This document shows positions 19,857-22,394 of a DNA stretch of 64,000 bases, piece after piece; positions within the stretch are counted from its first letter, which is position 1, and the number at the start of each line of letters is the position of its first letter. The notes beneath the pieces were generated by a model. The model saw only the letters and a list, made by a program, of their open reading frames with translations. It did no database searches and was not told the DNA's origin. This DNA is from Bacillus nitratireducens (GTDB taxonomy: Bacteria; Bacillota; Bacilli; Bacillales; Bacillaceae_G). Made by a program: the position numbers and the translations under genes. The stretch lies in assembly GCF_001884135.1 (NCBI RefSeq), contig NZ_MAOC01000007.1, positions 1 to 64,000 on the forward strand, read 5' to 3'.

Positions 19857-20804
19857 TTAGACAATCATTTCGTTATGTTTAATGGTAAGTGTTTCAATTT
19901 GAATTGTAGCATGTTCAATATGGAACTCTTGCTTTAACATATCAATAATATTTTGAAGCACTTCTTGATCATTTTGATTTTTATCAATCATTACATGAAC
20001 ACTTAAAGCATCTAATCCTGATGTAATAGTCCAAATATGAAGATCGTGTATATCACGTACACCCTTTACTCCTTTAATAGCTTTCTTAACTTGTTCTATT
20101 TCAATTGAAACAGGTGTACCCTCCATAAGTATATGAATGGAATGTTTTGTTACTCCCCACGCACTCTTTAAAATCAATAGAGCTACAACTACTGAAATAA
20201 TTGGATCTGCAATATACCATGAGAATAATGACATAAGTACACCAGCTACTAATGCGCCAACTGATCCTAAAGCATCCCCAAGAACATGTACATATGCGCT
20301 ACGTAAATTCACGTTATTTTTTACATCACCTTGTCTCATGAGCGCCCATGCACTAATTAAATTTGCTAGTAAACCAATTGATGCGATTAACATCATTGGA
20401 CCACTTGCTACAGTTGGTGGTTCAAAAAAACGACCAATTGCTTCCCATACGATAAGCCCTGCTACAACAAATAATGTAATTCCATTAATTAATGCTGCTA
20501 ATATTTCAAAACGATAATATCCATATGTTTTTGTAGAAGTAACCGTTCTAGCTGCAAGTCCTATTGCAATTAAACTTAATAATAATGAACTTGTATCACT
20601 TAACATATGTCCTGAATCAGATAATAAGGCCAAACTATTTGTAACTAGTCCCCCAAAAAATTCAAGGAACATAATAGTTGCTGTAATTACTAAAGCTGTA
20701 ATTAACCCTTTTCTATTCCCTTTCCTGCTCTCCTCAAAATGATGATGTCCATGCGAATGCCCGTGAGTATGTCCATGATGTTGGTGACCGTGATGATGTC
20801 CCAT
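19857..20804 (-). CDS. Cation diffusion facilitator (CzcD-type zinc/divalent metal exporter)
   Basis: A 315-residue CDF transporter. The N terminus is a His tract (HHHGHQHHGHTHGHSHGHHH) that can bind metal. Six spans follow with the transport-site motifs SLALLSDSGHMLSD (D-x-x-x-H/D pair) and YVHVLGDALGS, typical of Zn/Cd/Co exporters; the cytoplasmic domain has HDLHIWTIT. Start ATG at 20804 has GGGAGG 7 nt upstream. It is 43 bp downstream of a ferredoxin gene, probably co-transcribed, and the group starts with an ArsR-type sensor. Confidence 0.93.
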   Translation of the reverse strand: MGHHHGHQHHGHTHGHSHGHHHFEESRKGNRKGLITALVITATIMFLEFFGGLVTNSLALLSDSGHMLSDTSSLLLSLIAIGLAARTVTSTKTYGYYRFEILAALINGITLFVVAGLIVWEAIGRFFEPPTVASGPMMLIASIGLLANLISAWALMRQGDVKNNVNLRSAYVHVLGDALGSVGALVAGVLMSLFSWYIADPIISVVVALLILKSAWGVTKHSIHILMEGTPVSIEIEQVKKAIKGVKGVRDIHDLHIWTITSGLDALSVHVMIDKNQNDQEVLQNIIDMLKQEFHIEHATIQIETLTIKHNEMIV

Positions 20805-20847
20805 ATAAATTCCTCCCTTTAATTTTGTTTTGTCTTTCATAATTCCT

Positions 20848-21093
20848 CTATTGAATTTTCACTTTATTTATAAATGGCTCTTTTCTTACCTGAATCGAAC
20901 TTGTTGGACAGCCGTCACTTGCCGCCAACATTGCTTTCAAGAAAGTTTTTGGGATCCCCATTATTCCTTGATTGTTATCTAATGCACTAAATGATTTCCC
21001 TCTTCCATCTAATTGATATATATCAGGTGCTATAGAAGTACATAATCCACATGACTCACAATTCTTTTTATTTACGATCGTATAATGTAACAA
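20848..21093 (-). CDS. [4Fe-4S] ferredoxin
   Basis: An 81-residue monocluster ferredoxin. The cluster ligands are three Cys in CESCGLC and a distant one in SDGCPTSSI. It starts with TTG at 21093, supported by GGAGGTG exactly 7 nt upstream. Similar to the short Fer proteins of Bacillus, which pass electrons to P450s or other oxidoreductases; no partner is evident here. It lies between gpmA and the metal exporter and has a CsoR-like box in its 55-bp leader. Confidence 0.88.
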   Translation of the reverse strand: MLHYTIVNKKNCESCGLCTSIAPDIYQLDGRGKSFSALDNNQGIMGIPKTFLKAMLAASDGCPTSSIQVRKEPFINKVKIQ

Positions 21094-21119
21094 TATAAAT
21101 CACCTCCGTCACAAACATA

Positions 21120-21138
21120 CAATACACGGGTAGGGTAT
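21120..21138 (-). promoter_or_regulatory. CsoR-like box upstream of ferredoxin-exporter genes
   Basis: CAATACACGGGTAGGGTAT on the plus strand. Read on the minus strand (ATACCCTACCCGTGTATTG) it agrees with the remembered B. subtilis copZ operator at 15 of 19 positions. A weak promoter (TTAACA, 18 bp, TATGTT) overlaps it. Confidence 0.45.
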
Positions 21139-21148
21139 GTTAAAATGT

Positions 21149-21856
21149 TTATTTTATACAAATTTCCCTATTCAAATAATAATGGTCTATCGGTTTTAAA
21201 TCGTTATCCAATTCATAAACCAATGGTGTTCCTGTTGGAATGTTTACATTTTCTATATCTTCATCTGAAATTTGATCTAAATGTTTTACTAAAGCACGTA
21301 TTGTATTTCCATGGGCTGCAATAATTACTTGTTTACCAGCTTTTACATTAGGAGCTATCTCTTCATTCCAATATGAAACAACTCGTTTCTCTGTATCTTC
21401 TAGATCTTCTGTAAGAGGAAACTCATAATCATTTAAATCTCTATATTTCGGATGTGTTGCTTCATATCTTTCGTCATCTTTTGTAAGTGCTGGTGGGCGT
21501 ACATTTGTTGAACGTCTCCATAAAGTTACTTGTTCATCGCCATATTTTCTCGCTGTTTCTTCCTTGTTTAACCCTTGAAGCGCACCGTAATGACGCTCAT
21601 TTAATTTCCATGTTTTATGAACAGGTATCCACATCAAATCCATTTCTTCGAGAGTCATCCATAAAGTACGCATCGCTCTTCTCAAAACAGATGTAAATGC
21701 TATATCAAATGAGAAACCATTCGCTTTCAGCATTACTCCGGCTTCTCTTGCTTCTTCCAAACCTTTATTGGATAAATCAACATCCGTCCAACCAGTAAAC
21801 CTATTTTCAACATTCCATTCACTTTGTCCGTGCCGTATTAAAACTAGCTTTACCAT
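21149..21856 (-). CDS. gpmA: 2,3-bisphosphoglycerate-dependent phosphoglycerate mutase
   Basis: A 235-residue dPGM interconverting 3- and 2-phosphoglycerate by a phosphohistidine mechanism. Catalytic RHGQSEWN (His9), GWTDVDLSNKG, LNERHYGALQGLNKEE and the second catalytic His in IIAAHGNTIRAL are intact. The C terminus is slightly shorter than the ~245-250 of typical GpmA. Bacillus normally relies on the Mn-dependent GpmI for glycolysis, so this metal-independent enzyme in a metal-sensor operon is unusual context. AAAGGAGAGGAG precedes the ATG. Confidence 0.95.
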   Translation of the reverse strand: MVKLVLIRHGQSEWNVENRFTGWTDVDLSNKGLEEAREAGVMLKANGFSFDIAFTSVLRRAMRTLWMTLEEMDLMWIPVHKTWKLNERHYGALQGLNKEETARKYGDEQVTLWRRSTNVRPPALTKDDERYEATHPKYRDLNDYEFPLTEDLEDTEKRVVSYWNEEIAPNVKAGKQVIIAAHGNTIRALVKHLDQISDEDIENVNIPTGTPLVYELDNDLKPIDHYYLNREICIK

Positions 21857-21883
21857 ACTTATTATCTCCTCTCCTTTTAAAGT

Positions 21884-21919
21884 TGCATTTTCATAAAGAA
21901 GTATCTTTATGAAAATGCA
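21884..21919. repeat. Perfect hairpin between arsR and gpmA
   Basis: Two 16-bp perfectly complementary arms (TGCATTTTCATAAAGA and its complement) with a 4-nt loop and no T-run. As it lacks a terminator tail it may be an mRNA-processing or stabilising element between the two coding regions. Confidence 0.7.
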
Positions 21920-21922
21920 TGA

Positions 21923-22297
21923 TTACATATCAAGTTCTTTCTTGTTCATTTCACTACTATGACTAAACGCTAATTCAATTAATCCATTTACGTGAGAGTC
22001 ATCTAATGAATAAAAAACAAGTTTCCCTTCTTTACGCTTTTTCGCTAATCCTATTGTTTGTAATAGTCTTAAATGATGCGATGCCGTTGCAATACTGCTA
22101 TGAATAATACTTGCGACATCTCGTACGCAAAGCTCATTTTCCGTATACAGCGCATAAGCAATTTTCAAACGTGTTTCATCTGCAAGTGCCTTAAACATTT
22201 TCGCTACACTACTTATATTTTCTTTCTCCAACATGTCACTTGCATGTTTGACTTTTTTCTCATCATGATAACAAAGTTCACAATGTTCTTCACTCAT
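21923..22297 (-). CDS. ArsR/SmtB-family metal-responsive repressor (CadC-like)
   Basis: A 124-residue winged-helix repressor. The N terminus SEEHCELCYHDEKK has the extra Cys pair found in CadC-type sensors; helix alpha-3 has ENELCVRDVA, where CadC has ELCVCD, so one Cys ligand is Arg here. The recognition helix reads SSIATASHHLRLLQTIGLAKKRKEGKL in part, and the C-terminal helix has DSHVNGLIELAFSH with Asp/His ligands like the alpha-5 zinc site of SmtB. It likely senses Zn, Cd, Pb or Co. Start ATG 22297 follows GAGGTG; a GTG at 22306 is inside that site. Confidence 0.9.
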   Translation of the reverse strand: MSEEHCELCYHDEKKVKHASDMLEKENISSVAKMFKALADETRLKIAYALYTENELCVRDVASIIHSSIATASHHLRLLQTIGLAKKRKEGKLVFYSLDDSHVNGLIELAFSHSSEMNKKELDM

Positions 22298-22313
22298 ATG
22301 TAACACCTCTTAT

Positions 22314-22329
22314 TCAAATATATATTTGA
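22314..22329 (-). promoter_or_regulatory. ArsR/CadC-type operator at arsR 5' end
   Basis: TCAAATATATATTTGA, a perfect 16-bp palindrome between the -10 box and the arsR ribosome site. TCAAATA...TATTTGA is the half-site pattern of CadC-family operators. Confidence 0.7.
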
Positions 22330-22339
22330 TTATGTATGT

Positions 22340-22368
22340 AGTATACCTTATTAACCAAAAACATTCAA
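22340..22368 (-). promoter_or_regulatory. Promoter of arsR
   Basis: On the minus strand -35 TTGAAT (22363-22368), 17-bp spacer, -10 TATACT (22340-22345). The -35 lies inside the large palindrome and the second operator lies just after the -10. Confidence 0.75.
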
Positions 22369-22394
22369 ATGTTCATTTGAATGTTTTTGGTTAA
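22351..22394. promoter_or_regulatory. 44-bp perfect palindrome, likely ArsR operator
   Basis: Arms of 21 bp (22351-22371 and 22374-22394) are exact complements around TT. The centre reads ATTCAAATG-TT-CATTTGAAT, the 12-2-12 pattern of ArsR/CadC operators, and it covers the arsR -35 box. There is no T-run, so it is unlikely to be a terminator. Confidence 0.75.

What the first reader, a model, noticed from the sequence alone, without database searches (positions are those of the whole stretch)
19857..22394. ArsR-type metal sensor gene heads a group with phosphoglycerate mutase, ferredoxin and a CDF metal exporter
Seen: four minus-strand genes in a row, an ArsR/CadC-like sensor, a dPGM, a [4Fe-4S] ferredoxin and a CzcD-type exporter, with operators at the sensor promoter. 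Established: Bacillus glycolysis normally uses the Mn2+-dependent GpmI, while dPGM (GpmA) needs no metal. Inference: toxic Zn, Cd or Co mismetallates GpmI, and the sensor releases a metal-independent replacement along with the exporter, a glycolytic bypass under metal stress. The ferredoxin could rebuild damaged Fe-S clusters. I do not know of such an arrangement being described.
Basis: partly seen in the sequence, partly recalled or inferred. Interest (0 to 1): 0.75.

Follow-up and report, generated by a model that had tools for sequence, protein, structure and literature searches.

The report
Metal-sensor operon carrying a glycolytic enzyme
A bacterial zinc/cadmium-type sensor gene with clear control sites heads a gene row that holds, besides a metal exporter, a glycolytic enzyme that works without metal and an odd ferredoxin; this could let the cell swap in metal-proof glycolysis when toxic metal rises, but that has not been tested.

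Summary
On the minus strand lie arsR (22297-21923), gpmA (21856-21149), a [4Fe-4S] ferredoxin gene (21093-20848) and a CDF exporter gene (20804-19857), closely spaced and followed by a strong hairpin. Two operator-like sites (0 and 1 mismatch to TTCAAATNNNNATTTGAA) flank the arsR -10 box; similar sites lie near 25 of 58 arsR relatives. The sensor belongs to a CadC clade, often coupled to a Cd-type P-type ATPase (28 of 58). Its alpha5 (zinc-type) site is complete, but the alpha3N box reads ELCVRD where 43 of 47 relatives have Cys. The exporter is a CzcD type that elsewhere sits behind a different ArsR clade (22 of 30 loci). So the operon is a composite. GpmA is a true cofactor-dependent mutase; 39 of 48 related genomes with GpmA also carry Mn-dependent GpmI. 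In 51 gpmA loci examined, none had arsR, ferredoxin or CDF genes within about 1.5 kb. No close (B. cereus-group-like) genome was found in the collections, so conservation there is untested. Metal-regulated co-expression is likely; a glycolytic bypass under metal excess is plausible (published precedent: Mn starvation in S. aureus) but unproven.

The parts
21923..22297 (-). arsR, CadC-clade metal-responsive repressor, 124 aa; alpha5 ligands D100, H102, H113, E116 present; C6, C9, C57 present; ELCVRD box (R59 where relatives have Cys)
21149..21856 (-). gpmA, 2,3-bisphosphoglycerate-dependent phosphoglycerate mutase, 235 aa, motifs RHG, NERHYG, AAHGN present
20848..21093 (-). divergent single-cluster [4Fe-4S] ferredoxin, 81 aa, TTG start
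19857..20804 (-). CDF (CzcD/ZitB-like) cation exporter, 315 aa, His-rich N terminus
22364..22381 (-). operator-like site 1, perfect TTCAAATNNNNATTTGAA, overlaps the -35
   Evidence: similar sites in relatives
22349..22396 (-). perfect palindrome, 23-base arms, 2-base centre, containing site 1
22313..22330 (-). operator-like site 2 (1 mismatch), between the -10 and the arsR start
22340..22368 (-). promoter-like TTGAAT-17-TATACT (9 of 12)
   Evidence: not above chance on its own
21884..21919 (-). 16-bp perfect hairpin, 4-base loop, between arsR and gpmA, no T tract
   Evidence: -20.5 kcal/mol, z -9.1
19806..19850 (-). terminator-like hairpin after the CDF gene, T-rich 3' arm
   Evidence: -32.1 kcal/mol, z -10.4; not listed by the simple scan
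22418..22450 (-). terminator-like hairpin between the upstream esterase gene and arsR
   Evidence: -17.8 kcal/mol, z -6.4 for 22411-22460

Best explanation
This is a metal-excess operon arsR-gpmA-fd-CDF. Without metal the CadC-type dimer sits on the two operators around the -10 box and keeps the row off. When cytosolic zinc (perhaps also cadmium or cobalt) rises, metal binds the sensor, it leaves the DNA, and the exporter is made together with a phosphoglycerate mutase that needs no metal and a divergent ferredoxin. The exporter lowers the metal; GpmA keeps the 3PG-2PG step running while the Mn-dependent GpmI is starved of Mn or mismetallated. Shown here: genes, operator-like sites, clade of the sensor, metal and catalytic residues, GpmI/GpmA coexistence in relatives. 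Inferred: co-transcription, DNA binding, inducer, and the physiological bypass. The complete alpha5 site and the broken ELCV(C/G)D box point to zinc rather than cadmium as the main inducer (inference). I put about 0.8 on metal-regulated co-expression and about 0.4 on the bypass as the selected function; the figure given is for the whole statement.
For: Two operator-like sites above chance, with similar sites (up to 2 mismatches) near 25 of 58 arsR relatives. Sensor in a CadC clade, 100/100 support, apart from the 22 ArsRs next to CDF genes. alpha5 D, H, H, E present (definition from PMC1665450, passages). No minus-strand promoter-like match between the arsR promoter and the end of gpmA. 28 of 58 relatives sit directly before a P-type ATPase; 6 of 6 that I scanned pass the cadmium-family cut-off. 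GpmI in 39 of 48 GpmA-bearing relatives. Published: loss of GpmA, not GpmI, sensitises S. aureus to Mn starvation through glycolysis (PMC6684088 abstract); zinc inhibits glycolytic enzymes in S. pyogenes (PMC4450579, abstract text and passages); excess zinc mismetallates proteins in B. subtilis (PMC5189952 passages).
Against: The arsR-gpmA adjacency was seen in no other genome examined (0 of 58 and 0 of 51 loci), so nothing comparative ties the genes; close relatives could not be examined. 33 of 58 arsR relatives show no site with up to 2 mismatches. A weak promoter-like match (9 of 12) precedes the ferredoxin. The zinc paper names phosphofructokinase and GAPDH and has no mention of 'phosphoglycerate'. 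In S. pneumoniae under cadmium gpmA is in a table with -1.44, that is, down (PMC7678824 passages). Damage to GpmI by zinc is assumed; no source for it was read. The hairpin between arsR and gpmA could uncouple them.
Confidence: 0.5

Rival explanations
1. Ordinary metal-export operon with passengers: gpmA and fd came to lie between arsR and the exporter by rearrangement, are co-transcribed, but bring no metal-specific benefit.
For: In the 7 gpmA loci whose neighbours I listed the flanking genes differ, and 0 of 51 gpmA loci has arsR, fd or CDF nearby. B. fonticola has a CadC-type arsR followed directly by the CDF gene (L019, same gene as L126).
Against: Both extra genes are intact with good ribosome-binding sites (seen); GpmA keeps its catalytic motifs and the ferredoxin its four cysteines. 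Placing a glycolytic gene under a repressor makes little sense if it were needed all the time (inference).
Confidence: 0.3
2. The row is not one unit: arsR is autoregulated alone, the 16-bp hairpin ends or cuts its transcript, and gpmA-fd-CDF have other promoters.
For: Perfect 16-bp hairpin at 21884-21919; promoter-like match before fd.
Against: The hairpin has no T tract, so it does not look like an intrinsic terminator; no promoter-like match lies between it and gpmA; the strong terminator-like hairpin is at the end of the row.
Confidence: 0.12
3. Redox logic rather than metal excess as such: the sensor reports zinc set free by thiol oxidation or delivered by a host, and GpmA plus ferredoxin serve a general stress metabolism.
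For: Release of zinc on oxidation is recalled knowledge; the ferredoxin is a divergent paralogue of unknown partner.
Against: No direct evidence; sensor and sites match classical metal-resistance systems.
Confidence: 0.08

Closest known systems
S. aureus cad system (CadC repressor + CadA P-type ATPase) and its Bacillus counterparts (PMC6975044, passages)
   Same: sensor clade, N-terminal cysteines, ELCV box, alpha5 site, palindromic sites at the promoter
   Different: here the box is ELCVRD, the N-terminal pair is CxxC not CxxxC, the exporter is a CDF, and gpmA and fd are in the row
B. subtilis CzrA-controlled czcD (PMC5189952, passages) and the arsR-CDF pairs of Bacillales
   Same: ArsR-family sensor with a CDF exporter; the CDF here is up to 75% identical to those
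   Different: the sensor here is not in the ArsR clade found beside 22 of those 30 CDF genes ('CzrA-like' is my label for that clade, not tested); two added genes
S. aureus and Salmonella GpmA/GpmI pairs (PMC6684088, abstract and passages)
   Same: metal-free mutase beside a Mn-dependent one, keeping glycolysis going under metal stress
   Different: the stress is Mn starvation, and a discussion passage says the control of GpmA is unknown; here gpmA lies behind a metal-excess sensor
S. pneumoniae response to cadmium (PMC7678824, passages)
   Same: metal-free enzymes used to by-pass damaged glycolysis under metal excess
   Different: GapN and the pentose phosphate pathway; its gpmA is listed as down; no exporter operon involved

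Membership tests
ArsR/SmtB repressor, CadC clade | ArsR domain, nearest solved relative CadC | tested here: met
   (1u2w, E 4.8e-28); 52-row clade 100/100
ArsR/SmtB repressor, CadC clade | alpha3N site C7, C11, C58, C60 with ELCV(C/G)D box (PMC1665450) | tested here: not met
   C6, C9, C57 present, position 59 is Arg; of 47 relatives 43 have Cys there, 4 His. So CadC-like, without the canonical cadmium site
ArsR/SmtB repressor, CadC clade | alpha5 site DxHx10Hx2E (PMC8790569) | tested here: met
   D100, H102, H113, E116; all four in 35 of 47 relatives
ArsR/SmtB repressor, CadC clade | palindromic operator at the promoter | tested here: met
   sequence match only; binding not tested
ArsR/SmtB repressor, CadC clade | metal-dependent release from DNA | not testable with these tools
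   needs binding assays
Cofactor-dependent phosphoglycerate mutase (GpmA) | curated equivalog cut-off and catalytic motifs | tested here: met
   (400.3 bits, cut-off 305), alignment to 1e58, motifs
CDF exporter | CDF family cut-off and dimer domain | tested here: met
CDF zinc transporter ZitB (narrow name) | NF002923 cut-off 408 bits | tested here: not met
   289.3 bits
[4Fe-4S] ferredoxin | CxxCxxC...CP cluster motif, Fer4 domain | tested here: met
Conserved arsR-gpmA linkage | same order in other genomes | tested here: inconclusive
   0 of 58 and 0 of 51 loci, but no close genome turned up

The most novel reading that the evidence does not exclude
A metal-excess sensor, re-tuned from a cadmium to a zinc specificity, directly switches a glycolytic step from a manganese enzyme to a metal-free one in the same transcript that makes the exporter: detoxify and by-pass in one operon.
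Probability: 0.35. Interest if true: 0.7.

Novelty: new variant of a known kind. Interest (0 to 1): 0.45.

Why it matters
[quoted passage not shown] An operon that couples export to one metal-free glycolytic enzyme would point to phosphoglycerate mutase as a target worth insuring, and would extend the published S. aureus idea from manganese starvation to metal excess with a direct sensor. It also offers a natural case of a CadC-type sensor that lost a canonical cadmium ligand while standing before a zinc-type exporter.

Tried and rejected
Close kin: genome contigs with ArsR (best 64% identity), 397 genomes of the order with GpmA (best 72%), 299 with copA DNA (best 73%): no close relative turned up, so absence of the linkage elsewhere says nothing about the immediate group. 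Viral contigs with ArsR, palindrome and GpmA: nothing. Plasmids: 218 records with some match, 0 covering 80% of the region.

Papers: ten searches. I saw result listings with abstract starts, in four of them only the top part (25 of 59, 20 of 155, 15 of 47, 12 of 44), and passages of twelve papers plus the outline of one of these. Nothing seen describes the arrangement. The library holds open-licence papers only and supplements were not open. In four B. cereus-group papers 'phosphoglycer(ate)' had 0 occurrences in the main text and 'ferredoxin' 0 in the three where I asked; one search reports an ArsR gene GBAA3103 raised by peroxide and metal-resistance genes raised by an antibiotic, and I cannot tell whether either is this locus. 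PMC6356457 did not mention a Listeria CadC side target that I had recalled.

I do not favour the reading that gpmA came from outside the order: a 100/98 branch puts it with 35 rows, 34 of them from the order searches, against 15 from the phylum search; but its own branch is long (0.41) and its nearest kin were not available.

Full report
WHAT IS THERE. Four minus-strand genes lie in a row: arsR 22297-21923, gpmA 21856-21149, a ferredoxin gene 21093-20848 (TTG start) and a CDF exporter gene with likely start 20804 and end 19857. Family scans confirm each. The gaps are 66, 55 and 43 bases. A terminator-like hairpin separates the upstream esterase gene from arsR (22450-22418), and a strong hairpin with a T-rich 3' arm follows the CDF gene (19850-19806; the simple scan did not list it). 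Between arsR and gpmA is a perfect 16-bp hairpin without a T tract (-20.5 kcal/mol, z -9.1). The promoter scan shows no minus-strand match between the arsR promoter and the end of gpmA, and one weak match before the ferredoxin; promoter matches are not above chance in this region (28 found, mean 25.4 in shuffles).

OPERATORS. The pattern TTCAAATNNNNATTTGAA occurs at 22364-22381 with 0 mismatches and at 22313-22330 with 1; no other site in the 64 kb has 0 or 1, the expected number is 0.25, and 1 of 100 shuffles held two or more. They overlap the -35 and follow the -10 of the arsR promoter match. I took the pattern from the window before looking at the relatives. Near the start of arsR relatives a site with up to 2 mismatches is found in 25 of 58 loci and in 17 of the first 20 loci listed (read off); several of these are near-copies of one another (Sporolactobacillus), so they are not independent. 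33 of 58 have none. The first site is embedded in a perfect palindrome with 23-base arms; in the relatives the longest perfect arm is 13. This extension is unexplained.

SENSOR. Nearest solved proteins are CadC of S. aureus (1u2w) and Lmo1102 of Listeria (the species names are recalled). In a tree of 74 rows the window protein lies in a 52-row set with the 47 relatives that were good enough to use, split with 100/100 support from 22 ArsR proteins that stand beside CDF genes (few columns, bootstrap not settled, the window's exact neighbour unresolved). Of the 58 loci, 28 have a P-type ATPase directly downstream and 2 a CDF gene. Six of those ATPases were scanned: all six exceed the cadmium-family cut-off, and with lower scores also the copper-family cut-off. 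By the ligand list in PMC1665450 (passages) the alpha5 site is complete, while the box ELCV(C/G)D reads ELCVRD. Among 47 aligned relatives 43 have Cys at that position and 4 His; 35 have the full alpha5 set. PMC8790569 (passages) says that alpha5 sensors answer to zinc-like ions and alpha3N ones to cadmium or lead. I infer a zinc preference; a thiolate site with C6, C9 and C57 cannot be excluded.

EXPORTER. In 299 genomes of the order 167 have a CDF match at 1e-80. Of the 30 best places, 23 have a same-strand ArsR directly upstream; 22 of these ArsRs are in the other clade and 1, in B. fonticola, is in the CadC clade with the CDF gene next to it. None of the 30 has a gpmA or ferredoxin match within about 1.5 kb. 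The window row is thus a CadC-type sensor with its sites in front of a CzcD-type exporter, with gpmA and fd between.

GPMA. It passes the curated dPGM cut-off and aligns almost end to end with PDB 1e58. GpmA was found in 15 of 19 genomes of one family (1e-40), 45 of 397 of the order (1e-60) and 16 of 299 of the phylum (1e-70). Of 48 GpmA-bearing genomes tested (48 of the 49; G026, with a broken gpmA, was left out), 39 also have GpmI and 9 do not; all nine of these carry a second GpmA. In 51 gpmA loci no ArsR, ferredoxin or CDF match lies within about 1.5 kb; four flanks were shorter because contigs end, and one search gave loci for only the best 30 of its 54 places. The tree puts the window GpmA on the side of the order's GpmA proteins. 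GpmI in the window's own genome could not be checked.

FERREDOXIN. It is 45-54% identical to the 30 nearest ferredoxins of the order, while those are 91% alike (median; minimum 57%) among themselves; the 30 are the best matches of 258 genomes, so they are a biased set. It looks like a divergent paralogue. None of the 30 stands near an ArsR, CDF or gpmA match.

MECHANISM. Metal-regulated expression of arsR, and very probably of the genes behind it, is the best reading. The benefit of gpmA is inferred from published work: GpmA is needed by S. aureus under Mn starvation through glycolysis (PMC6684088, abstract; a discussion passage says the control of GpmA is unknown), zinc hurts glycolysis in S. 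pyogenes (PMC4450579, passages; phosphoglycerate mutase is not mentioned), and cadmium-stressed S. pneumoniae leans on metal-free enzymes (PMC7678824, passages; its gpmA is listed as down). That zinc or cadmium disables GpmI is inference, with no source read here.

LIMITS. No paper describing the arrangement was seen in ten searches of an open-licence library, which does not prove that none exists.

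Noticed in passing
15850-27230: The row lies between csoR-copZ-copA-like copper genes and a siderophore-type uptake set (esterase, ABC ATPase, two FecCD permeases, binding protein), all on the minus strand: a stretch rich in metal genes.
   Followed up: partly
53041-53092: A second perfect palindrome with 23-base arms (6-base centre) stands upstream of a lipoteichoic acid synthase-like gene at 53386-55305 (NF053595 744 bits, below its 970 cut-off).
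   Followed up: no
19370-19597: Small 75-aa ORF between the CDF gene and csoR, hydrophobic N terminus by eye, no Pfam or NCBIfam match at 0.001.
   Followed up: no
L003:6001-6375: Priestia taiwanensis has a CadC-type ArsR (60%) with no P-type ATPase or CDF match in the fetched locus and no operator-like site nearby, so its target may lie elsewhere.
   Followed up: no
L085: One relative's gpmA carries a stop codon inside the frame: a lost gene or a sequencing error.
   Followed up: no
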